From positions 2,280,001 through 2,344,000 of the forward strand of contig NC_013960.1 in the NCBI RefSeq assembly GCF_000024725.1: DNA of 64,000 nucleotides, in the 5' to 3' direction. This stretch comes from Nitrosococcus halophilus Nc 4. Lineage in GTDB: Bacteria > Pseudomonadota > Gammaproteobacteria > Nitrosococcales > Nitrosococcaceae. Of this stretch, positions 20,086 through 31,137 are shown one piece after another. The notes under the pieces are model-generated. The model had not been told where the DNA came from. It worked only from the letters and a program-made list of their open reading frames with translations, and ran no database searches. Numbering within the stretch: the first letter of the stretch is position 1; each line of letters opens with the position of its first letter. The position numbers and the translations under genes are program-made.

Positions 20086-22098
20086 TTAAGCGACCCAACC
20101 TAATTCTTGAGCCCGTTGCCGCGCCAGCGCCGGGATATCCGTAGCAATAAAATGCTGATGCAGGATTTGCACCCCTAGGAGGTGGTTGATGATTGCATCT
20201 AACCGCACTTTAGTGGATATTGGTGTTGCTTCGGCCTCATGTAATTCAAACAGGGTATTGACCCCTTGAACATCCAATAATCCAGCCTGGGCGATGGCCT
20301 CCTCCGTCAGATATTTTTGGGCCAATTGGTTCACGGCTGCCCACTTTTGGGGATCCGTATGGGCAGGCGGCGCCATGAAAGCGAATTTTTCTCGTTCATA
20401 AAGTACCTTAGGTAGTAACCCTCGCATGGCCTCCCGTAAGACATACTTTTCCTTCTGCCCTTTAATCCGCATAGCGGGGGGCAGTTGGGTAGCGAGTTCG
20501 GCCAGATGGTGGTCTAGGAAGGGGGGGCGAGCTTCCATGGAGTTGGCCATATCCACCCGGTCTCCCCCCCAGGTCAGGATCTGCCCCTCAAGCATGGTTT
20601 TGACCCAAACATACTGGGCCTTGTCCAAAGGATGACGGTCAGCCAACATATCTGCGTCCAGATTCTCCGCGATAGCTTGTCCCGGTTTATAGTTTTCTAG
20701 TTGCTCCCGGAACGGAGCGCTCAGCAAAGCAGGGACATGTTCAGCCGCATGGAGCCAAGGCTGAAGGCAGCTAGGGGTAAAACCCATCAAGGCATTCAGA
20801 GCCGGGTCCTGGGTTTCGTTCTCGGCCAGCATCGCCCCCCGGAAGAGTTGGTTGCTTTGGGCCAGCCCCTGTTCCCATTGGGCTCGTTCCTGGGGGGAGA
20901 GGATATCAAGCCCATGGAGGAACATGTCTCGGCGGAAGGCGGGATAGCCCCCAAATAGTTCGTCCGAGCCTTCACCGGTGACGACCACTTTATATTGCGC
21001 TTGGTGGACATGGCGGCTCATTAGCAGTTTGGCAACCCCAAGGGTGTTGTAGATAGTTCGCTCGGTATGCCAGAGAGTTTCGGCAAAGTGGTCATAGAGG
21101 TGATCGGCCCGCAGCCGGATAATGTCTTGATCAGCCCCTGTTGAGCGCGCCATTTCCTGGGCGATGGGCGTTTCATCATAATCCGCATCATCAAAACCGA
21201 TGGTGAAAGCTTTGACGGGTGACTGCTGGATGGCAGCCGAGAGACCTAGGGCGATGCAGGAGTCAATGCCTCCGGAGAGATAGCACCCTACCGGCACGTC
21301 TGCTTCTAGTCGAAGTTGCACAGCCTCGGTAAGCTTTGCCCGGACTCCTTCAATATAGTGCTCTTCCGGCAGGGAGTCGTGGCGATCCGATAGCCGGGGA
21401 AAATCAAGATCCCAGTATTTCTCTTCCCGGATCTGGAAAGTACCCTGTTTGCGCTCCACAATGACCACATGACCGGGTTTGACTTGATGAATGCCCTCGA
21501 AGGCGGTGCTGCCGGGTACCATGGTTTGCATCAATTGATGAAAGAGGCCTTGAGGGCTGAAGCGGCGTGGAACTTCAGGGTGGGCAAAGAGGGCCTTGAG
21601 TTCGGAACCAAATACCAGGGTGCCGTTCACTTGGGTCCAGTAGAGGGGTTTGATCCCAAAACGGTCCCGTACGAGCATTAGCCGATCCCTTTCCTGATCG
21701 TAGAGGGCAAAGGCAAATTCTCCCCGCAAGTGAGGTAACATGCCCTGTAGCCCTAGCCGGGGGTAGAGATGAAGCACCAACTCGGAGTCGCTCTTGGTTC
21801 GAAAACGGGCCCCCCGCGCGGTTAAATCGGCCCGGATTCGTTTGTAATCATAAAGTTCCCCATTGGTGGTGAGCAGCAATCGACCGTCCTCAGAAGCAAA
21901 AGGTTGTTGGCCTCGGTTCTCTTCCAGGTCAATAATGGAGAGGCGGGCATGACTGAAGCCGATCCCTTGTTCATTGAGGACTTTATAGCCAAAACCGTCC
22001 GGGCCGCGATGATGCTGAATGGCAGCCATGGCCACGAGGGTTTGGGGATCGATAGGATGGGAGGGGTTGAGATGTATGTAACCGGCAATACCACACAT
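20086..22098 (-). CDS. asnB: Asparagine synthase (glutamine-hydrolysing)
   Basis: 670 residues. The class II glutamine amidotransferase domain starts with MCGIAGY, so Cys2 is the nucleophile; the synthetase domain has the PPi-loop motif CYLSGGIDS, TGEGSDELFGGYPAFR and EARPPFLDHHLAEL. AAAGGAATG precedes the start. The size and sequence fit the larger bacterial AsnB group, which often works in exopolysaccharide or capsule amidation; the position beside the rhamnose genes would fit that too, but primary asparagine synthesis is equally possible. Confidence 0.93.
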   Translation of the reverse strand: MCGIAGYIHLNPSHPIDPQTLVAMAAIQHHRGPDGFGYKVLNEQGIGFSHARLSIIDLEENRGQQPFASEDGRLLLTTNGELYDYKRIRADLTARGARFRTKSDSELVLHLYPRLGLQGMLPHLRGEFAFALYDQERDRLMLVRDRFGIKPLYWTQVNGTLVFGSELKALFAHPEVPRRFSPQGLFHQLMQTMVPGSTAFEGIHQVKPGHVVIVERKQGTFQIREEKYWDLDFPRLSDRHDSLPEEHYIEGVRAKLTEAVQLRLEADVPVGCYLSGGIDSCIALGLSAAIQQSPVKAFTIGFDDADYDETPIAQEMARSTGADQDIIRLRADHLYDHFAETLWHTERTIYNTLGVAKLLMSRHVHQAQYKVVVTGEGSDELFGGYPAFRRDMFLHGLDILSPQERAQWEQGLAQSNQLFRGAMLAENETQDPALNALMGFTPSCLQPWLHAAEHVPALLSAPFREQLENYKPGQAIAENLDADMLADRHPLDKAQYVWVKTMLEGQILTWGGDRVDMANSMEARPPFLDHHLAELATQLPPAMRIKGQKEKYVLREAMRGLLPKVLYEREKFAFMAPPAHTDPQKWAAVNQLAQKYLTEEAIAQAGLLDVQGVNTLFELHEAEATPISTKVRLDAIINHLLGVQILHQHFIATDIPALARQRAQELGWVA

Positions 22099-22240: not shown

Positions 22241-23323
22241 CTAGCTTTGCCCTGGGGTGTCCATCACCTGATCGATACGTTGAACAAGGGAAGTGAGTAA
22301 AGCCATGCGCATAAATACGGCCCCCCGGGCTTGGGCAAAGTACCAATTATGCTCCGTATTGTCCAAATCAGTGGACAATTCCTCCCCCCGAGCCAAGGGA
22401 TGGAGAATAATCGCCCCCGGTTTTAGGGGAGAAGACTGGCGAAGTCCCAAGCCTTCTCCCAGCTTTTCAAAACTGTCTCCTACCCAAGCAATGGAATTGA
22501 TGTACACCACGTCCAAGGTGGGAAGTTCAGGATTGAGATGGCGGGCTATTCGGAGGGTAAGACCGGAAAGTTCTAGCTCCTCCCGCTGATCTTTTGCAAA
22601 TACGTCTTCCTGGTGGCAAATCACGACCACTTCTTTTATCGCTGGTGCAAATAAGGCCAGGAACAACAGCAGACTGCGCACGGTGCGCATATAACCGGGT
22701 ATTCCTACGATGCCCACCCTTATCTGGGTCTCGGCCGGGACCTTCGGTGCTATCAACTCAGGTCGCCACTTGAACAAGGTATACAAATCGGCTAAGCCCT
22801 GGGTGGGATGCTCATCAATGCCGTTCCCTGCATTGATAATGGGAATACGCAAGGATTCCAGCATTTTGTAGACGGCCTCCTCGCTGCCATCCCGCAGTAC
22901 CACTAAATCTCCGTAGTTATTGAACATCTCGGCCACGTCGGCCAAGGTTTCCCCCTTGGCAATGCCCGTAGTGGCCGGATCGGTAATGGACATTACATCG
23001 CCGCCTAGTCGATGCCAGGCACTCTCAAATGAAAGTCGGGTACGGGTGCTGGGTTCATAAAAGGCATTGATGAGAATCTTACCCGTGAGGGGCAGTTGCA
23101 TCCGGGTGGGGGTAGTCTCATAAAGGGCCGCTAGACGGCTGAGTTGAATGACTTTCTCCCGGTCGAACTGGCGAGCGCTGAGTATAGGGCGATTAGCCAG
23201 ATCCACCAAAGGCGCCGGATTTTCTGGAATCTGCTCCATGAGGGCCAAGGGCCGCTCGATGCCGGCCGTATCATCCTTGGGCTGTAAAGGCTCCTTTAAT
23301 AGAGGGTTGAATTTCTTCACCAT
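22241..23323 (-). CDS. Aspartate carbamoyltransferase-like enzyme with altered acceptor site
   Basis: About 360 residues. The carbamoyl-phosphate half is intact: YEPSTRTRLSFE, AKGETLADVAE and HPTQGLADLY. In the second half the L-aspartate ligands of true ATCase are changed: the TRVQ motif (Arg229, Gln231 in E. coli PyrB) reads INSIAW here, and HPLPRVDE reads HPLARGEE. So the fold is ATCase but the acceptor probably is not aspartate. Last gene of an overlapping operon of ureido-hydrolase-type genes. ATG 23323 is chosen (MVKKFNPLLK); it overlaps the 40-residue ORF by 7 bp. Confidence 0.85.
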   Translation of the reverse strand: MVKKFNPLLKEPLQPKDDTAGIERPLALMEQIPENPAPLVDLANRPILSARQFDREKVIQLSRLAALYETTPTRMQLPLTGKILINAFYEPSTRTRLSFESAWHRLGGDVMSITDPATTGIAKGETLADVAEMFNNYGDLVVLRDGSEEAVYKMLESLRIPIINAGNGIDEHPTQGLADLYTLFKWRPELIAPKVPAETQIRVGIVGIPGYMRTVRSLLLFLALFAPAIKEVVVICHQEDVFAKDQREELELSGLTLRIARHLNPELPTLDVVYINSIAWVGDSFEKLGEGLGLRQSSPLKPGAIILHPLARGEELSTDLDNTEHNWYFAQARGAVFMRMALLTSLVQRIDQVMDTPGQS

Positions 23324-23439
23324 AACTGACCCTTTATCCAATCGCGAAGCAGCAATACGAGCAAAACTAAAGGCGCAGCGGAGGTGATGATTAGGGCTGC
23401 CGTGACTAACCCAGTCAGCCATTCTGCCGATATCAGCAT
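23317..23439 (-). CDS. Small membrane protein, putative symporter accessory subunit
   Basis: A 40-residue frame (starts MLISAEWLTGL, ends RDWIKGQLW) with one long hydrophobic helix of about 22 residues. Its start lies inside the last codons of the symporter gene (7-bp overlap) and its end overlaps the carbamoyltransferase start by 7 bp, so it fills the gap exactly. Very small one-helix proteins encoded beside sodium/solute symporters are known as small accessory proteins; I infer this role from location and topology. Confidence 0.7.
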   Translation of the reverse strand: MLISAEWLTGLVTAALIITSAAPLVLLVLLLRDWIKGQLW

Positions 23440-24881
23440 GGGGTTTCCTCTTGTGGATGAGCTTCCTGTAATCTGTCCCAGTTGAAGTCCCGGGGCCAAA
23501 GCCAGGTGCTTAAGAGCACGATAACCATGGACACGAAGGCGCCTACCAGGGCGGCCACATAAAACCCAATGGCGAAATAACTGGAGAGACCGGCAATGCT
23601 GCCCAGGGCCATGGCAGCGACTGCCCCCATTGGGTTGGTGCGGCGCCAATAGAGCCCTGCGGCAATGGGCCAGATGGTGCTGGCCACGAAAGCGCCGGTG
23701 AAATAGAGCAATTCGGCGAGCGTGGCTAGCCGGGGGACGCATAGGAGCCAAGTCAATACCCCAAGACCGATAATGGTGACCACCGTCACCCTACGGAGCT
23801 GCTGACCGGTGGCATGAGGGCGCAAGTGGCGCCGGTAGAGGTCTTCCACCACCAAGATACTGGTCGCTGCCAATAAAGAATCTAGGCTTGAGGAAAGGGC
23901 TGAGAATACCATAATCAGTACCAGAACTGCGCCAGTGACACCCAGCAATTCTCCGGCAACCATGGGACCGACCATATCCGCCGCCGGGATATTGAGATCC
24001 AGGGCGGGAACCGCCAGGGCAATAAAACCAGCCACGACCGGGATCGGCATCCATAAGATGCCCGCAGTGAAATAGGCCTTAAATCCCACCCCTTCTCGAA
24101 AGGAAAAAGCGCGGCTCCACCACACGTTAGAGTGAAACACTTCACCTATCCCAAACAACAGATTATTGAAAAGAAACATGAGGGCAGCGGGCATCAGGAG
24201 ATTAAGTAATTGGGGGCGTTCTTCAACGACTGCGGTATGGATGCGGTCAAAGCCTACGTTATCGATGGCGAGCCAGGCAATCACCACCAGCCCAGATAAA
24301 ATCAGCAGCGATTGGATAAAATCGGTGCCGATAACGGCGCGAAAGCCTCCCAACAGGGTATAGCTGACACAGATAGTTAGAATAATAGTCATGCCATAGT
24401 GGTAGGGAATGCCGGTCAGGGCATTGATGAGAATGCCTCCCGCCATTCCCATACTCACTAGCCAGCCGAGGCCGTAAAACAGGGAGATGAGAAGGAACAG
24501 TCGCCAGGCAGTTTTTCCATAGCGCAAGCGGATAAAATCACCGCTCGTATAGCCATTGGGCATGAGCTTGCGGATCCGCTTGGCAAGTGGGGCAAACATG
24601 AGCAGCCCTACCGCTCCCAGGGAATAGCCCAGCATCCCCCAGATGCCCATCTGGAAGGCCAGCTGGGGGGCGGCCATGGTAGTATTGCTGGTCACCCAGG
24701 TGGCCATGGCGGTGGCAGTGCCTAAGGCAAGTCCTACCCTGCGTCCGGCCAGCACATATTCGTCTAGGGCTTTGGCATTGCGGCCCCAGAACCAGCCGAG
24801 CCAGACCCAAATCACGCTGAGAATGGCTAAGGTGATCCAACCGAGGCGAGGCTCCAGGATGGCGCTGTTAATCGAATTCAT
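23433..24881 (-). CDS. Sodium:solute symporter (SSS family)
   Basis: A 482-residue integral membrane protein with about 13 hydrophobic segments and SSS signatures: GTATAMATWVTSNTTM, an LGGFRAVIGTDFIQS segment like the family pattern, and FSALSSSLDSLLAATSI with the Ser/Ser sodium-site region. Substrate not determinable; family members carry amino acids, pantothenate, urea, nucleobases or allantoin. Its place between the hydrolase genes and the carbamoyltransferase suggests import of the ureido compound the operon breaks down. It overlaps the upstream gene by 4 bp. Confidence 0.92.
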   Translation of the reverse strand: MNSINSAILEPRLGWITLAILSVIWVWLGWFWGRNAKALDEYVLAGRRVGLALGTATAMATWVTSNTTMAAPQLAFQMGIWGMLGYSLGAVGLLMFAPLAKRIRKLMPNGYTSGDFIRLRYGKTAWRLFLLISLFYGLGWLVSMGMAGGILINALTGIPYHYGMTIILTICVSYTLLGGFRAVIGTDFIQSLLILSGLVVIAWLAIDNVGFDRIHTAVVEERPQLLNLLMPAALMFLFNNLLFGIGEVFHSNVWWSRAFSFREGVGFKAYFTAGILWMPIPVVAGFIALAVPALDLNIPAADMVGPMVAGELLGVTGAVLVLIMVFSALSSSLDSLLAATSILVVEDLYRRHLRPHATGQQLRRVTVVTIIGLGVLTWLLCVPRLATLAELLYFTGAFVASTIWPIAAGLYWRRTNPMGAVAAMALGSIAGLSSYFAIGFYVAALVGAFVSMVIVLLSTWLWPRDFNWDRLQEAHPQEETPC

Positions 24882-25609
24882 GTGGGCACCACCTGGTTGA
24901 TTTCCTCAATGGCTTCATTGGTGGACATGACTCGTGCATAACGATCTTTCATAGTTTGTATGGTCGCCTTTTGCAGTTCCGGAGTGACCGTGGTGCAACC
25001 ATCCTCGATCAAAGTCGTGTAGAAACCTAGATCGCAGGCGTCGCGAATAGCTGTGGAGACACATTCATTGCTATAGACTCCAGCCACGAATAGGCCCGTA
25101 ATCCCTAAGTTACGCAAGACATAGGACAAATTGGTGGAGCTAAAGACGCCGCTGGCGGTTTTGTTAATGATAATCTCATCTCCTTGGGGGGCGATTTCTG
25201 GCAGAAACTCCGCTTCCTTAGAGCCTGGCGGGGCATAGAGGCCTAAGCGTTTGTGTTGGGGGCCGCGATCACGACCGTCTTTTGTTAAGGACTGGATGCG
25301 GGTGTGAATGACCTCCAAGCCGTTGCTGCGAAAGGTGTCTTGCAGGCGCCGCACATTGGGTAAGACGATCTGTTCTAACTGGTCAAAGTAATAGAATTCG
25401 GGGGCCTCTTTAGGGACTTGCCCTTTGGGTAAATGGGCAAAAACTCCATAGCCAGGCGCCGCATCCAGGTATTGTAAGTCCACTACCAGCAGCGCGGTGC
25501 GGCCCCTTTCTAAGGATTCCACAACGGCGGGGATTTCGGTCACGGTCTCCCGGTAGCTGTCCCGCAATGGATCAAAACTTTCCTTTGAGGATGAGTTTGG
25601 TTTGGCCAT
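24878..25609 (-). CDS. Isochorismatase-family cysteine hydrolase
   Basis: 243 residues. The Asp-Lys-Cys triad is visible: Asp in LLVVDLQYLD, Lys in IIINKTASGVFSST, Cys in VYSNECVSTAIRDA. The fold includes true isochorismatases, N-carbamoylsarcosine amidase, biuret hydrolase and RutB-type ureidoacrylate amidohydrolase. The neighbours (M20 carbamoylase, symporter, carbamoyltransferase) favour an amidohydrolase acting on a carbamoyl-N compound; exact substrate unknown. Long N-terminal extension of about 35 residues. Confidence 0.88.
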   Translation of the reverse strand: MAKPNSSSKESFDPLRDSYRETVTEIPAVVESLERGRTALLVVDLQYLDAAPGYGVFAHLPKGQVPKEAPEFYYFDQLEQIVLPNVRRLQDTFRSNGLEVIHTRIQSLTKDGRDRGPQHKRLGLYAPPGSKEAEFLPEIAPQGDEIIINKTASGVFSSTNLSYVLRNLGITGLFVAGVYSNECVSTAIRDACDLGFYTTLIEDGCTTVTPELQKATIQTMKDRYARVMSTNEAIEEINQVVPT

Positions 25610-25627
25610 GATGGTATTAATGAAAGC

Positions 25628-26866
25628 TTAGTGGGCTAGTTGATAGAGCGTATTTAACGCTACGTTGGCTCCTATTTCGATGTCCTCCCAGGGGGTCCAT
25701 TCTGCCGGGGAATGACTGCGTCCCCCTTGGCTAGGAACAAAAATCATGCCTGCCCGGGTAAGGGTCGCCATGATTTGGGTGTCGTGGGCAGCTCCGCTTG
25801 GCATCTGCAAAGGCTCCACCCCGAGATTTCGGGCCGCATCAAAAATGGCCTCCATGAGGCCTGGGTCGCACTTGACCGGTTCAATCTCACTCAAAACTTC
25901 AAATTCGAACATGAGCCCTCGGCGACGGGCAATCGCAGAGAGGGCGCGGCGGAAGGCATCAGCTAAATCCCTAAGGATGACCCCTTCGGTGTCCCGCACA
26001 TCCAGCGAGAATTTGACGCTTCCCGGGACTACATTGGCGGCTCCGGGAAAAATCTCTACCCGACCGATGGTCGCTACGCTACGAGCGCTGCCATTTTCTT
26101 CCAGGATCCGGGGGATTTCCCCAGCAAATTCAGCCAGGCCTTGAAAGGCATCCTGGCGCATGTCCATGGGGGTGGTGCCGGCATGGTTGGCCGTTCCCTT
26201 CAGGGTGGCCTCCCATTTGAACAAGCCGACGATGCCTTCAACCACACCAATGCTGACTCCCTCCCGTTCTAAAACGGGACCTTGTTCAATATGAAGTTCT
26301 AGAAAGGCGAGTACGCTTTCCGGCTTGCGCCGGGCCCGCAGGATATCCGTGGGATTAAGGCCCTGGGCCGTCATCACTTGGGAGAGGCTCATTCCGTCCA
26401 GGTCGCGGGCATTGTAAATAGCCTCAGGGGTGAGCTGGCCGCAGATAGCCTGAGACCCCAGCATGCCGCCGAAACGCCCTTCTTCATCGGTAAAAGCGAT
26501 GGCTTCTACCGCATGGCGCAAAGACAGCCCCAGCTCCTTGAAGCGTCGCAGGCACTCCAGTCCCACCAATACCCCTAGGGCCCCATCGAGGTGGCCGGCT
26601 CCCGGTACCGTATCAATATGGGAGCCGGTCATGATGCTGGGACGTTGACCATCCCAATTGAAGCGGGCGTGGATATTCGCAGCCCCATCCACGTACAGAT
26701 CTAATCCCGCTTCTTGAATGCGTTTTTGCAGCCATTCGCGGGCGGCCTGGTCGCCTTCGCTAAAGGCCATGCGGTAAAGGCTGTAATTTTCATGCCGGCC
26801 AATACGGGCTAAGGTCTCCACATCCGCTTGCAGCCGCTCGAAGTTCACCTTGAGGGATTTCGCCAT
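25628..26866 (-). CDS. M20 family N-carbamoyl-L-amino acid hydrolase / allantoate amidohydrolase
   Basis: 412 residues from the ATG at 26866, which shares its A with the TGA of the preceding gene. Zinc-site motifs: GSHIDTVPGAGHLDGALG (His, Asp), FTDEEGRFGG, LELHIEQGPVLE, and the dimerisation-domain bridge NHAGTTPMDMRQDA. C-terminal SGAAHDTQIM and SQGGRSHSPAEW are typical of the HyuC/AllC/beta-ureidopropionase group. These enzymes release ammonia and CO2 from N-carbamoyl compounds. An 18-bp gap separates it from the isochorismatase-like gene. Confidence 0.9.
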   Translation of the reverse strand: MAKSLKVNFERLQADVETLARIGRHENYSLYRMAFSEGDQAAREWLQKRIQEAGLDLYVDGAANIHARFNWDGQRPSIMTGSHIDTVPGAGHLDGALGVLVGLECLRRFKELGLSLRHAVEAIAFTDEEGRFGGMLGSQAICGQLTPEAIYNARDLDGMSLSQVMTAQGLNPTDILRARRKPESVLAFLELHIEQGPVLEREGVSIGVVEGIVGLFKWEATLKGTANHAGTTPMDMRQDAFQGLAEFAGEIPRILEENGSARSVATIGRVEIFPGAANVVPGSVKFSLDVRDTEGVILRDLADAFRRALSAIARRRGLMFEFEVLSEIEPVKCDPGLMEAIFDAARNLGVEPLQMPSGAAHDTQIMATLTRAGMIFVPSQGGRSHSPAEWTPWEDIEIGANVALNTLYQLAH

Positions 26867-27357
26867 CACTTGGCTCTCTCTTTTTGACTGTGCCGGGCTC
26901 CAGAGATTATAAGAACTAGGGTGGCAAGGAATACCACGGCCCCAGCGGCAAAGAAAGCAAAAGCGCGCGCGGGAGGATGGTGTCGGACAGTTACCGCTAC
27001 CGGTGAACTCCATGGGCTTGTTGGCTGTCCCTGGTCCAAGGCGCGGACCCGATAAAAATATTGGCCGTTCTTGCGCCCGCTGATTAGCGTTGCTTGATCG
27101 GGACCTCGGTAAATCGTTGTTGGTTGGGTAAATCCCGCGTCACTAGCTTCTTGGAGTTCATAGCTTGAGGCTAACAACCCATTTCCCTGCCATTTTAGAT
27201 GGTAAAATCCTGCTGTTGCAGTACGGCTGTCAGAGACGAGTTCCGGGACAAGGGGAGCTGCTTCAACCGCCCACGCCGATGAGGCTATAGGGAGAAGGAC
27301 AATAATAACTGAAATAACTGATCTTAATTTTTCCGTAATACTGGCTCGAATCCTCAT
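26866..27357 (-). CDS. Membrane-anchored fibronectin type III-like protein
   Basis: 163 residues: an N-terminal signal segment ending in SSAWAVEAAP, one FN3-like beta domain (YHLKWQGNG...SYELQEASDAGF...GQYFYRVRALDQG...SPWSSPVAVTV), then a C-terminal transmembrane helix (FAFFAAGAVVFLATLVLIIS) and a basic tail. First gene of the operon ending in the carbamoyltransferase, coupled to the M20 gene by TGATG. No enzyme motif; a periplasmic binding or scaffold role is a guess. Divergent from glrK, with 135 bp between them. Confidence 0.8.
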   Translation of the reverse strand: MRIRASITEKLRSVISVIIVLLPIASSAWAVEAAPLVPELVSDSRTATAGFYHLKWQGNGLLASSYELQEASDAGFTQPTTIYRGPDQATLISGRKNGQYFYRVRALDQGQPTSPWSSPVAVTVRHHPPARAFAFFAAGAVVFLATLVLIISGARHSQKERAK

Positions 27358-27492: not shown

Positions 27493-29085
27493 ATGGAGGA
27501 TCAATCCGTTACTGCTCGCCATCGATCCCATAAGTCTGGTGTCAAAAAAAGCGTTTGGACTTTCGGAAAGTTTGGAATTGTCCCATTTAGACAGCGGTTG
27601 TTCAAATTAGCACAGGCCAAAATATCCCCTTTGGGGCGTCTTTACTGGGCACGCCCAAACTCTTTTATTGCTTTGATTTTGGGGGGGTTCTTAATTGTAG
27701 CCTTGCCTTTATCCGCCGGACTGATTATCGCCACTGTGGAAATGGAATACTTGGCGCGTCAAAGCACGGCAGCCGTTTATAAAAGCGTTCGGGTAACTCA
27801 AGGAAGTCGAATCTTGGGACAACAACTTATTGCAATGGAGCGTGCTGTGAGGCAATTTCAGGTGTTGAATGATCCTGCGCTATATCAGGCCTATATGGCT
27901 AACCGCCGCAAATTCCGGGATATTCTAGGGCAAATGTTAGAATTACCTCTCAGCGAGGAGCAACGGCAAGGGTTTGGCGCGCTGGCGCGTAAAGAGAGCG
28001 AGATTTACGATGTTTTGAGTCGTTATGCTTTAGATGCCGATGCCAGTAAACAAGCTCTCAACCAGTTTTCCGGCTTAGCACGCCAGGCACAGGCGCTACT
28101 AGCGGAGAGTAATCAGTTGGTGGGCGAAGAGGTTAATGCCCTGCAAGAGACGGCACGCAAGTCGAAGGAGTGGCTCTTTTGGCAAGCATTGATTCTTATT
28201 CCTGCGGCAGTGGCCATGGCCGGTTTGTTTACGGTCTTGATTAGGCGATATTTTCGCCAGTTTGACAAATCCATAAGGCGCCTGGGTGATGGGGATTTTG
28301 AGACCCCTATCAAGGTGACGGGTCCCCGTGACTTGGAAGCACTAGGGCAACAATTGGATTGGTTACGACAACGTTTGGTCGAGCTGGAAGAAGCCAAAAC
28401 CAAGTTTCTTCGACACGTTTCCCATGAGCTCAAAACGCCGTTGGCAGCCCTGCGGGAGGGGGCGGAATTGCTTTGCGATCAGGTTACGGGCCGTTTGAAT
28501 CCGCAGCAATTAGAAGTGGCCCGGATCTTACGTGACAATAGTTTGCGTTTGCAAAAGCTGATTGAAGATATGCTTCGCTTTAGCCTAGCAGGGAGCAATC
28601 AAATCGAACATATTCCCGAAGTCGTGCGGTTGGATCAGCTGATTAAAATCGTGTTATCTGATCACAAGCCGACCACGCTATCGAAGCGGGTTAAGCTCGT
28701 TGCAGATTTGAATCCGGTAAGAGTTTTTGGTGACCGGGAACGTTTGAAAGCCATTATTGATAATTTAGTGTCCAATGCCCTTAAGTATTCACCCTCTGAT
28801 AGTTCAGTGAAGGTCAAATTAGCCCAGGAAGGCAATCAAGTCCACCTTGATGTGTGTGATTCCGGTCCCGGGGTTGCGTCTGAGGATGGAGAACGGATAT
28901 TTGATTCCTTCTATCAAGGGAGGGCGCAGCCCTTAGGCCCCGTTAAAGGAACCGGCTTAGGACTTTCAATTGTAAAAGAAAGCGTCCTCGCCCATGGAGG
29001 CCATATCGAACTTATCAATAGTGGTCAAAGGGGAGCGCATTTTCGAGTGACTCTGCCTTTGACAGTGGCGGAGCAGCGCCCATGA
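27493..29085 (+). CDS. glrK: Two-component sensor histidine kinase GlrK (QseE)-like
   Basis: 530 residues. Two transmembrane helices (about residues 57-80 and 225-245) flank a helical periplasmic domain, followed by a HAMP-like linker, the H-box FLRHVSHELKTPLAAL, N-box IDNLVSNALKYSP, and G-boxes DSGPGVASEDGERIF and GTGLGLSIVKES. The following genes (lipoprotein, sigma-54 response regulator) match the glrK-qseG-glrR order. It overlaps qseG by 4 bp. The N-terminus is about 40 residues longer than E. coli GlrK, so the true start may be internal. Confidence 0.88.
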   Translation: MEDQSVTARHRSHKSGVKKSVWTFGKFGIVPFRQRLFKLAQAKISPLGRLYWARPNSFIALILGGFLIVALPLSAGLIIATVEMEYLARQSTAAVYKSVRVTQGSRILGQQLIAMERAVRQFQVLNDPALYQAYMANRRKFRDILGQMLELPLSEEQRQGFGALARKESEIYDVLSRYALDADASKQALNQFSGLARQAQALLAESNQLVGEEVNALQETARKSKEWLFWQALILIPAAVAMAGLFTVLIRRYFRQFDKSIRRLGDGDFETPIKVTGPRDLEALGQQLDWLRQRLVELEEAKTKFLRHVSHELKTPLAALREGAELLCDQVTGRLNPQQLEVARILRDNSLRLQKLIEDMLRFSLAGSNQIEHIPEVVRLDQLIKIVLSDHKPTTLSKRVKLVADLNPVRVFGDRERLKAIIDNLVSNALKYSPSDSSVKVKLAQEGNQVHLDVCDSGPGVASEDGERIFDSFYQGRAQPLGPVKGTGLGLSIVKESVLAHGGHIELINSGQRGAHFRVTLPLTVAEQRP

Positions 29086-29783
29086 GGGAGATAAGCTATG
29101 GGAAGGCACTAGGTGTGTTGGTGCTGGCTTTGTTGTTAGCCAGCTGTACCGCACTGAAATCTGCTTATCCAATTCCCGTTGATGAACTTTCTACTCCGCC
29201 ACCCAACCACTTAGAACCGGATCCGAATAATTCGGTACTTCTGCTTCACTATTATCGTGGTTTGCGTTCCTTGTCAGAGGGGGAGCTGCGGCAAGAATTG
29301 GATCGAGCATGGCAGGCGACCGCCAAAGAGCCGACGGCCTTTGATCGCTTACGGCTGATTTTGCTCCTTTCTTTACCCGAGGCACCGTTCCAGGACTTGG
29401 AGCAAGCCCGGGGGATGTTGCATGATTTTCTAGAGACTGAGAATGCTGAAGGACTCTATGATTTGGCCTTATTGCTTCAAGGGTTTGTGGTGGAAGAGGC
29501 ACAACAGGAACGTCGCTATCGTCTCCTTCAAGAAAAGCTCCAACAAAAAGAGGAGCAAGTGAGACGCTTGAGAAGTGGACTGAAATACCTTGATGGTCGT
29601 CGTAAGCAGGAGCAGGAGTGGGCCAAGAGCTTGGAGAAGCAACTAGAAGACGAGCGAGGAAGAGCGGAAACGTTAGAACGAAAGCTTGAGGCCCTTAAAA
29701 CCATAGAAAAAAGGCTAGAGCACCGAAATCAATCCAAGGAGAATTTGGAACTACCTGAACAGGGAAAAGAATTAGATGAGTGA
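29082..29783 (+). CDS. qseG: QseG-like lipoprotein
   Basis: 233 residues with a lipoprotein signal (VLALLLASC, lipobox LASC with Cys22) and a C-terminal long coiled coil rich in Glu/Lys/Arg (about residues 145-225). In enterobacteria QseG is an outer-membrane lipoprotein that touches the periplasmic domain of GlrK and is needed for signalling. Its place between kinase and regulator, overlapping both, supports the call; sequence similarity itself is weak by eye. Confidence 0.8.
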   Translation: MREISYGKALGVLVLALLLASCTALKSAYPIPVDELSTPPPNHLEPDPNNSVLLLHYYRGLRSLSEGELRQELDRAWQATAKEPTAFDRLRLILLLSLPEAPFQDLEQARGMLHDFLETENAEGLYDLALLLQGFVVEEAQQERRYRLLQEKLQQKEEQVRRLRSGLKYLDGRRKQEQEWAKSLEKQLEDERGRAETLERKLEALKTIEKRLEHRNQSKENLELPEQGKELDE

Positions 29784-31137
29784 AAAAAACAGGATTCTAC
29801 TGGTAGATGATGATCGCGATCTGCTGCGATTATTATCAATGCGTTTGGCTGGACGTGGTTACGAAACTGTAGTCGCGGAAAGCGGGGAAGAGGCGTTGGC
29901 TCAGGTGGAGTTGGCCCGCCCCCAAGCGGTAATCACCGATTTGCGAATGGAAGGAATGGATGGGATGGTGTTGGCGGACTGCATTCACCGCAAAAACCCA
30001 GCATTGCCGGTGATTATTTTGACCGCCCATGGTTCGATCCCCGATGCAGTGCATGCGACTAAAAATGGAGTCTTCGCTTTTCTGACTAAACCCTTCAATA
30101 GCCGGGAACTCTTGGCCCAAGTGGAGAAGGCGCTTCAGATTTCGGGTACCCACTACGCTTCGGAGAAAGAGCCGACAGAGAGTTGGCGCGAGGAGATCAT
30201 CACCCGCAGCTCACTGATGGAGGATTTACTGAGTCAGGCTCGGCTAGTTGCCGAAAGCGATGCCAGCATTTGCCTGCGAGGTGACAGCGGGACGGGCAAG
30301 GAGTTACTGGCCAAAGCTATCCATAAGGCCAGCTCCCGGAATGAACAACCTTTTATTGCCGTTAACTGTGCGGCCATTCCAGAGTTGCTGCTGGAATCTG
30401 AGTTATTCGGCCATGCTAAAGGTGCGTTTACTGGCGCAACCCGGGATTATCCAGGACTATTTCAGGCCGCCCATGGGGGTACCTTGTTTCTGGATGAAAT
30501 CGGGGATATGCCTTTTTCTCTCCAGGTAAAATTGCTACGGGCTTTGCAGGAGCAACAAGTACGGCCTGTGGGGAGTACCTCCACTGTCATGGTGGATGTG
30601 CGTATTATCTCGGCCACCCACAGAGATTTGGATGCAGAAGTACGTGATGGCAATTTTCGGGAAGATCTCTATTATCGGCTTAATGTGGTGGTATTGGAGA
30701 TTCCACCCCTCGCCGAGCGGCGAGAAGATATCCTTCCCCTTGCCAGCCATTTTCTATCCACTATTGGGAATGGAATCAAGAAAAATGTTCGGGGGTTTTC
30801 CGGCGAAGCCATAGAGTTGTTGGTGAGTGCTCCTTGGCCGGGCAATGTACGCCAGCTCCATAATGTTGTGGAACAAACCGTCGCTTTGTCCACCACCCCC
30901 ATTATTTCCGCTAAACTGGTCAAAAAAGCACTGCGGCAGCAGTCAGGCCAATTTCCTTCCTTTGCAGAAGCCCGGAGGCAGTTTGAGCAGGAATATCTGG
31001 CGGGCCTACTCAAAATCACCAATGGCAATGTGACTCAGGCGGCCCGTCTGGCCCAGCGTAATCGCACCGATTTTTATAAGCTTTTGCAACGTCATAACTT
31101 GGATCCTTCCGCATTTAAGCCTGTGAAGCGGCAGTAA
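29776..31137 (+). CDS. glrR: Sigma-54-dependent response regulator GlrR-like
   Basis: 453 residues in three domains: receiver (LLVDDDRDLLRLL, phosphoacceptor Asp in AVITDLRMEG, Lys in LTKPFNSRE), AAA+ sigma-54 activator (GDSGTGKELLAKAIH, the sigma-54 contact loop GAFTGATRDYPGLF, LFLDEIGDMP), and a C-terminal Fis-type helix-turn-helix (NGNVTQAARLAQRNRTDFYKLL). E. coli GlrR activates sRNA glmY and rpoE promoters. It overlaps qseG by 8 bp. A sigma-54-type promoter lies nearby at 32336 but may belong to another activator. Confidence 0.9.
   Translation: MSEKNRILLVDDDRDLLRLLSMRLAGRGYETVVAESGEEALAQVELARPQAVITDLRMEGMDGMVLADCIHRKNPALPVIILTAHGSIPDAVHATKNGVFAFLTKPFNSRELLAQVEKALQISGTHYASEKEPTESWREEIITRSSLMEDLLSQARLVAESDASICLRGDSGTGKELLAKAIHKASSRNEQPFIAVNCAAIPELLLESELFGHAKGAFTGATRDYPGLFQAAHGGTLFLDEIGDMPFSLQVKLLRALQEQQVRPVGSTSTVMVDVRIISATHRDLDAEVRDGNFREDLYYRLNVVVLEIPPLAERREDILPLASHFLSTIGNGIKKNVRGFSGEAIELLVSAPWPGNVRQLHNVVEQTVALSTTPIISAKLVKKALRQQSGQFPSFAEARRQFEQEYLAGLLKITNGNVTQAARLAQRNRTDFYKLLQRHNLDPSAFKPVKRQ

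What the first reader, a model, noticed from the sequence alone, without database searches (positions are those of the whole stretch)
22241..27357. Six-gene operon that looks like an undescribed carbamoyl/ureido-compound catabolic system
Seen: one minus-strand run of FN3-like protein, M20 carbamoylase, isochorismatase-fold hydrolase, sodium/solute symporter, 40-residue membrane protein and an ATCase-like enzyme, nearly all overlapping by 1-7 bp. Known: M20 carbamoylases and isochorismatase-fold amidases split N-carbamoyl compounds; SSS proteins import them. Inferred: uptake and stepwise breakdown of a ureido compound, with the carbamoyltransferase either making carbamoyl phosphate or moving the carbamoyl group. 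For an ammonia oxidiser this could supply NH3 and CO2. I know no named pathway with this exact set.
Basis: partly seen in the sequence, partly recalled or inferred. Interest (0 to 1): 0.8.

Follow-up and report, generated by a model that had tools for sequence, protein, structure and literature searches.

The report
Gene set for orphan salt-protectant osmolyte
Seven neighbouring genes in this salt-loving bacterium probably make, take up and recycle N-carbamoyl-glutamine amide, a salt-protecting molecule described in 1991 whose genes do not seem to have been named; the genome of the species it was isolated from carries the same seven genes.

Summary
Reading order on the minus strand is FN3, M20, ISO, SSS, SML, CT, ASN. 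CT, ASN and ISO orthologues occur in exactly the same 23 of 369 gammaproteobacterial genomes. Of 80 named CT loci, 77 have ASN downstream.

[quoted passage not shown] CT would carbamoylate glutamine and ASN amidate the alpha-carboxyl; FN3-SSS-SML would import it; ISO and M20 would undo the two steps. The genome of E. marismortui DSM 4180T holds all seven genes, as M20-ISO-CT-ASN and FN3-SSS-SML. Thiorhodospira sibirica, said to have no annotated osmotic-stress genes, holds all seven in five places. CT keeps the carbamoyl-phosphate and alpha-carboxylate residues of ATCase but lost both aspartate side-chain residues.

The ammonia-supplying reading is not supported as the main role; M20 and ISO fit the recycling half. 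The product is inferred, not assayed. No paper naming CGA genes was found in the open-access text searched.

The parts
26866..27357 (-). FN3: secretion-signal-like N-terminus, one FN3 domain, C-terminal probable membrane helix; probable accessory subunit of the SSS transporter
   Evidence: AF2 model mean pLDDT 84.6, FN3 folds in Foldseek; found with SML in 57 of 57 SSS-containing loci with at least 5.2 kb upstream; adjacent to SSS where the cluster is rearranged
25628..26866 (-). M20: L-carbamoylase-like amidohydrolase, inferred N-carbamoyl-L-glutamine hydrolase (recycling step 2)
   Evidence: NF006771 554.6 > 399, TIGR01879 372.5 > 204; closest solved structure by sequence 3n5f N-carbamoyl-L-amino acid hydrolase, 293 bits, next 212; GSH.D, EEGRFGG, HIEQGP and SH motifs in at least 97% of 87 rows
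24878..25609 (-). ISO: isochorismatase-fold cysteine amidase, inferred to remove the 1-amide of CGA (recycling step 1)
   Evidence: PF00857; D, K, C positions in at least 97% of 83 rows; nearest solved structure by sequence, 6xix 'Cysteine hydrolase', scores only 62.5 bits; same 23 of 369 genomes as CT and ASN
23433..24881 (-). SSS: sodium/solute symporter, inferred (re)uptake of CGA
   Evidence: PF00474 104.9 bits > 22.8; TIGR00813 144.4 below its cut-off 184; orthologue (73%) in E. marismortui at a separate FN3-SSS-SML locus
23317..23439 (-). SML: 40-residue protein, probably single-pass in the membrane, inferred symporter small subunit
   Evidence: no Pfam or NCBIfam match; iterated profile finds it in 57 of 57 SSS loci with at least 5.2 kb upstream
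22241..23323 (-). CT: ATCase-fold carbamoyltransferase with altered acceptor site, inferred L-glutamine N-alpha-carbamoyltransferase (synthesis step 1)
   Evidence: AF2 model Z 37.0, rmsd 2.4 over 318 residues to ATCase 5iln; residue map; clade apart from PyrB
20086..22098 (-).
   Evidence: TIGR01536 431.6 > 267.1; downstream of CT in 77 of 80 named loci; MCGI and SGGIDSC motifs in at least 97% of 90 rows

Best explanation
[quoted passage not shown] Synthesis (inferred chemistry): CT transfers carbamoyl from carbamoyl phosphate to the alpha-amino group of L-glutamine; ASN then uses ATP and a second glutamine to convert the alpha-carboxyl to the amide, masking both charges. Recovery: SSS, with two small partners FN3 and SML, re-imports leaked or external CGA with sodium. 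Disposal when salt falls: ISO hydrolyses the 1-amide, then the M20 enzyme hydrolyses the carbamoyl group, returning glutamine, CO2 and 2 NH3. Shown here: gene families, conserved co-occurrence, altered CT acceptor site, conserved catalytic motifs, presence of the complete set in the genome of the CGA species' type strain. Inferred: the product, the substrate of each enzyme, the direction and the regulation.
For: (1) CT, ASN and ISO orthologues fall in exactly the same 23 of 369 genomes (chance of identical sets 4.7e-37 if genomes were independent, which they are not). (2) The genome of E. marismortui DSM 4180T, the species CGA was isolated from (PMC1224877 passage; accession FOUO in PMC8877833, same as locus L124), has M20-ISO-CT-ASN and FN3-SSS-SML elsewhere, with no stop inside the matched stretches of the genes checked except at the SSS C-terminus. 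(3) T. [quoted passage not shown] (4) CT keeps the carbamoyl-phosphate ligands and R167 (alpha-carboxylate, recalled) in 102-103 of 103 rows (97 distinct sequences); the R229 and Q231 positions are A/S/T (one K) and A/V/L. This fits an acceptor with a free alpha-carboxyl and a side chain other than aspartate's. (5) ASN resembles enzymes amidating free carboxyls, including the NAGGN amidotransferase (321.8 bits, below that family's cut-off). (6) M20 is nearest to an N-carbamoyl-L-amino acid hydrolase. (7) The 28 named hosts whose titles do not say MAG belong to marine, halophilic or haloalkaliphilic genera (genus ecology recalled). (8) In Ectothiorhodospira the cluster lies between sucrose synthase and a sugar kinase most like fructokinase, and in an unrelated MAG (L154) beside such genes; sucrose is another osmolyte.
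Against: No enzyme has been assayed. In the passages I read CGA is not reported from Nitrosococcus, Thioalkalivibrio, Kangiella or spirochaetes; a 2013 review says one organism only, a 2020 paper lists it among solutes of other purple sulfur bacteria without naming species there, while the gene set is in far more organisms. A Raman study cited in the 2013 review saw no CGA signal in E. marismortui extracts, though the compound was not in the reference library; CGA is called a minor solute there. At least four other named Ectothiorhodospira species carry the cluster with no CGA report known to me. ASN passes the general asparagine synthase cut-off, so plain asparagine synthesis is not excluded by family alone. 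S80 of ATCase is G in this family, one row has K at the R229 position, and specificity for glutamine cannot be read from sequence. The acceptor loop is modelled poorly (pLDDT under 50 at 279-288). The window's own genome does have a carbamate kinase. The original CGA paper was not held, so I rely on reviews for the species and on recall that DSM 4180T is the strain it used.
Confidence: 0.8

Rival explanations
1. Same architecture, different product: CT carbamoylates another amino acid (glutamate with ASN amidating one or both carboxyls, asparagine, or a small neutral amino acid), and the end product is a different N-carbamoyl amino acid amide osmolyte or nitrogen store.
For: The acceptor pocket of CT is altered, but sequence does not name glutamine; in the papers found, CGA is tied by name only to Ectothiorhodospira.
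Against: CGA is a known solute whose two modifications match CT and ASN one for one, in a species whose genome holds all seven genes.
Confidence: 0.12
2. One reading: a catabolic system that imports an external ureido compound and breaks it down for NH3 and CO2, with CT running in the phosphorolytic direction.
For: M20 and ISO are hydrolases and SSS is of an importer family; the window's genome has a carbamate kinase above cut-off (391 > 358.25).
Against: CT and ASN are the constant pair and ASN is of an ATP-consuming amide-forming family; no ISO orthologue in the Kangiella, Aliikangiella and Aliidiomarina genomes searched; no carbamate kinase passes the cut-off in 4 of 5 genomes, E. marismortui among them; named hosts share salinity rather than one nitrogen metabolism (ecology recalled).
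Confidence: 0.06
3. Unlinked housekeeping functions: CT is a second pyrimidine ATCase and ASN an ordinary asparagine synthetase, next to a carbamoyl amino acid scavenging operon.
For: ASN passes TIGR01536; CT has the ATCase fold.
Against: A PyrB above cut-off (NF002032 409.2 > 263) sits elsewhere in the same genome, beside a gene that looks like pyrR by eye; CT is below the ATCase cut-offs and lost both aspartate side-chain residues; strict co-occurrence even where the genes are scattered.
Confidence: 0.02

Closest known systems
N-acetylglutaminylglutamine amide (NAGGN) pathway
   Same: A glutamine-based osmolyte with masked amino end and amidated carboxyl; an asparagine-synthetase-like enzyme makes the amide (pathway recalled).
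   Different: Here an ATCase-like carbamoyltransferase would mask the amino end and there is no dipeptide; ASN scores 321.8 against the NAGGN amidotransferase cut-off of 570.1.
Aspartate carbamoyltransferase (PyrB)
   Same: Fold (Z 37.0 to 5iln), carbamoyl-phosphate ligands and R167 equivalent.
   Different: R229 and Q231 equivalents lost, N-terminal extension of about 40 residues, separate clade, below TIGR00670 and NF002032 cut-offs.
M20 L-carbamoylase / allantoate amidohydrolase family
   Same: Above subfamily cut-offs NF006771 and TIGR01879; nearest to 3n5f.
   Different: Below the cut-offs of every equivalog model listed, AllC and ErtE included; here paired with an amidase and synthesis genes.
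Biuret / ureidoacrylate / N-carbamoylsarcosine amidohydrolases
   Same: Isochorismatase fold with the D, K, C positions.
   Different: 70.8 bits against the biuret hydrolase cut-off of 370 and 54.2 against RutB's 377.95.
Ectoine and glycine betaine gene clusters
   Same: Compatible-solute function with linked uptake or breakdown genes in halophiles (recalled).
   Different: Unrelated enzymes and product; N. halophilus is listed with ectoine genes (PMC7824335 table passage).

Membership tests
Aspartate carbamoyltransferase (PyrB) | Score above TIGR00670 / NF002032 cut-offs | tested here: not met
   188.0 against 236.95; 177.8 against 263. Own PyrB control 306.5 and 409.2
Aspartate carbamoyltransferase (PyrB) | Aspartate side-chain residues R229 and Q231 (function recalled) | tested here: not met
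   A/S/T (one K) and A/V/L in 103 rows, 97 distinct sequences
ATCase/OTCase superfamily | Carbamoyl-phosphate ligands STRT, K84, R105, H134, Q137 (functions recalled) | tested here: met
   103 of 103 rows, Q137 102 of 103; S80 is G
M20 carbamoylase (TIGR01879 / NF006771) | Score above subfamily cut-offs | tested here: met
   372.5 > 204 and 554.6 > 399
Allantoate amidohydrolase AllC (TIGR03176) | Score above equivalog cut-off | tested here: not met
   262.6 against 597.75
Biuret amidohydrolase BiuH (NF050097) | Score above equivalog cut-off | tested here: not met
   70.8 against 370
Isochorismatase-fold cysteine hydrolase | PF00857 and D-K-C catalytic triad (triad recalled) | tested here: met
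   113.8 bits > 27; triad positions in at least 97% of 83 rows
Asparagine-synthetase-like amidotransferase (TIGR01536) | Score above cut-off, Cys2, PP-loop SGG.DS (motifs recalled) | tested here: met
   431.6 > 267.1; MCGI and SGGIDSC in at least 97% of 90 rows
NAGGN amidotransferase (TIGR03104) | Score above equivalog cut-off | tested here: not met
   321.8 against 570.1
CGA pathway (proposed) | Present in the CGA species | tested here: met
   all seven in E. marismortui DSM 4180T
CGA pathway (proposed) | Enzymes make CGA from glutamine | not testable with these tools
   needs assay

The most novel reading that the evidence does not exclude
This is the missing genetic basis of CGA, an osmolyte so far tied by name to one purple sulfur bacterium: an ATCase-derived glutamine carbamoyltransferase plus an amidotransferase, with a three-part sodium symporter (SSS plus FN3 and 40-residue partners) and a two-step recycling branch. 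It would make CGA a widespread, nitrogen-rich compatible solute of ammonia oxidisers, haloalkaliphilic sulfur oxidisers, marine Kangiella/Idiomarina relatives and marine spirochaetes.
Probability: 0.72. Interest if true: 0.8.

Novelty: new variant of a known kind. Interest (0 to 1): 0.74.

Why it matters
CGA was described in 1991 and a 2013 review still listed it from one organism only; no genes for it turned up in my searches of open-access papers. A defined gene set would turn an orphan osmolyte into a genome-predictable trait, predict it in several phyla, explain how Thiorhodospira sibirica may cope with salt without the usual genes, and reveal a new acceptor specificity in one of the best-studied enzyme folds (ATCase). 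With four nitrogens per molecule (formula recalled) it would also link salt adaptation to nitrogen budget in an ammonia oxidiser.

Tried and rejected
Catabolic carbamoyl-phosphate route: tested by looking for carbamate kinase; 1 of 5 genomes passes, the window's own, and the loci without ISO keep CT and ASN. Rejected as the main role, not excluded as a side role.

NAGGN membership for ASN and BiuH/RutB membership for ISO: below cut-offs.

Pfam/NCBIfam for FN3, SML and the 233-aa neighbour gene gave nothing above a curated cut-off.

Promoter and terminator scan: 4 promoter-like and 11 terminator-like sites against 5.4 and 9.7 expected; uninformative. It neither splits ASN from CT nor proves co-transcription.

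CT homologues at about 40% identity (L091-L094): none of the other cluster genes nearby; not pursued. The tree places four of them inside the CT clade on long branches, and the program warns that such joins may be false.

Literature: searches (CGA names; 3 and 5 papers, all listed; solute plus enzyme names; 0 papers; 15 of 489 listed; 10 of 64 listed; E. marismortui or DSM 4180; 20 of 26 listed) showed no paper naming CGA genes. Only open-access PMC is searched, and not all listed papers were opened; a subscription paper could exist. Passages were seen of PMC7824335, PMC1224877, PMC3857566, PMC8877833, PMC6056424, PMC5818414 and PMC7398229; all others only as search listings.

Rows dropped or doubled: the 80 named loci are the best 80 of 310 relatives. 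Of the 23 class genomes, neighbourhoods of G393 and G368 were not fetched. One search used 101 rows. Searches used only hits above identity and coverage limits set in the script, 81 to 103 rows per gene of 104 loci; some loci are the same contig fetched twice, leaving 74 to 97 distinct sequences per gene. Plain tblastn missed FN3 or SML in some loci; the iterated profiles found them, and could over-recruit.
Full report
WHAT IS THERE. The window is G000:C2:2280001-2344000 of a 4.145 Mb genome in two contigs of 4,079,427 and 65,833 bases; from recall this fits Nitrosococcus halophilus. On the minus strand lie FN3 (27357-26866), M20 (26866-25628), ISO (25609-24878), SSS (24881-23433), SML (23439-23317), CT (23323-22241) and, 142 bp further on, ASN (22098-20086).

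THE UNIT IS CONSERVED. All seven genes are in the same order in the three other genomes of the genus. Of 20 further gammaproteobacterial loci fetched, 19 keep M20-ISO-CT-ASN and the twentieth (L087) is cut by a contig end; 14 show all seven genes by plain tblastn. In one sample of 369 gammaproteobacterial genomes, CT orthologues (61% identity or more), ASN orthologues (68% or more) and ISO orthologues (65% or more; next best 44%) occur in the same 23 genomes. A scan of named genomes found 310 relatives of CT and kept 80. By plain tblastn, 77 of 80 have ASN downstream on the same strand; two of the three misses (L126, L152) are contig ends and the third (L118) is Thiorhodospira sibirica. Thirty-seven of 80 show all seven in this order.

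MODULES. The variants show three modules. CT and ASN are constant. M20-ISO can sit upstream (most Gammaproteobacteria), between CT and ASN (eight MAG loci, seven labelled spirochaete), or be missing from the locus (Kangiella, Aliidiomarina, Idiomarina, Aliikangiella; some of these have a more distant M20 nearby). In the genomes of Aliidiomarina sedimenti, Kangiella aquimarina and Aliikangiella sp. no ISO orthologue was found (best 29% partial, in Aliidiomarina) and the best M20 is 44-46%. FN3, SSS and SML travel together: FN3 and SML are in 57 of 57 SSS-containing loci with at least 5.2 kb upstream; of 9 loci with such upstream sequence but no SSS, 8 have neither and T. sibirica keeps SML. Where M20-ISO has moved away, FN3 is next to SSS. 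FN3 and SML are therefore best read as partners of the symporter. The FN3 model is an FN3 domain plus a long C-terminal helix.

THE LINK TO A KNOWN MOLECULE. [quoted passage not shown] mobilis (PMC1224877 passage), and that it was known from one organism (PMC3857566 passage); a 2020 paper lists it among solutes found in other purple sulfur bacteria (PMC7824335 passage). PMC8877833 lists the genome of E. marismortui DSM 4180T as FOUO00000000. Locus L124 is NZ_FOUO01000006.1, titled E. mobilis strain DSM 4180, and carries M20-ISO-CT-ASN. The same genome carries FN3-SSS-SML on another contig, SSS 73% identical. The matched stretches are free of internal stops, apart from one at the natural end of SSS. 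So the genome of the CGA species holds the full set. T. [quoted passage not shown] Retention of the complete set without linkage is strong evidence for one pathway.

MECHANISM. CT has the ATCase fold (Z 37.0, rmsd 2.4 over 318 residues to 5iln) and forms a clade with its orthologues apart from PyrB (some long branches). It keeps the carbamoyl-phosphate residues and R167, which contacts the substrate analogue in ATCase (PMC6056424 passage; the alpha-carboxylate role is recalled), in 102-103 of 103 rows, with S80 changed to G. The two residues that hold the aspartate side chain (recalled) are changed in all 103 rows. The same genome has an ordinary pyrB, above the ATCase cut-offs, next to a gene that looks like pyrR by eye. 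ASN has the glutaminase cysteine and the PP-loop and resembles amidotransferases acting on free carboxyls. M20 is closest to an N-carbamoyl-L-amino acid hydrolase, and ISO is a cysteine amidase with conserved D, K, C positions. Carbamoylation plus amidation of glutamine gives exactly CGA; amidase plus carbamoylase gives glutamine back. The chemistry is inferred.

SETTING. All 28 records whose titles do not say MAG belong to Ectothiorhodospira, Thiorhodospira, Thioalkalivibrio, Thiohalobacter, Thiohalophilus, Aliidiomarina, Kangiella or Aliikangiella, which from recall are marine, halophilic or haloalkaliphilic. The other 52 are MAGs whose habitats I did not check. In Ectothiorhodospira the cluster lies between a sucrose synthase (TIGR02470, 1199 > 810) and a sugar kinase most like fructokinase but below that cut-off. 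In L154, an unrelated MAG, relatives of both follow ASN. Sucrose is another osmolyte.

AGAINST. Nothing was assayed. CGA is not reported from most carriers in what I read, and one Raman study saw no signal for it in E. marismortui, though the compound was not in its library. Glutamine specificity is not readable from sequence. The acceptor loop is poorly modelled. The window's own genome has a carbamate kinase, so a catabolic direction is possible there. The original paper was not held. The chance figure for identical genome sets ignores relatedness.

VERDICT. A real, conserved seven-gene unit, most likely the CGA synthesis, uptake and recycling system. New as a gene assignment as far as the open-access searches show.

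Noticed in passing
window 27493-31137 (+): Divergent three-gene set: histidine kinase, 233-aa protein without family match, and a sigma-54 response regulator close to but below the GlrR cut-off (626.9 against 763). It adjoins the cluster in the three other Nitrosococcus-genus genomes; possible regulator, unproven.
   Followed up: partly
L119 4917-7301 (-) and 18829-19734 (-); relatives of both in L117, L120, L122, L123, L124, L127: Sucrose synthase and a fructokinase-like sugar kinase flank the cluster in Ectothiorhodospira, suggesting an osmolyte gene neighbourhood.
   Followed up: yes
L091, L092, L093, L094: Carbamoyltransferases about 40% identical to CT in other contexts, one (L093) in a genome that also has the full cluster; acceptor unknown.
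   Followed up: partly
L133 3977-4810 (+): A second, weak CT-like stretch (25% identity) upstream of a full cluster.
   Followed up: no
L150, L161, L166, L169, L175, L176, L181, L185: Eight MAG loci, seven labelled Leptospiraceae or Spirochaetaceae, have the M20-ISO pair between CT and ASN, and their CTs cluster together, which suggests transfer followed by rearrangement.
   Followed up: partly
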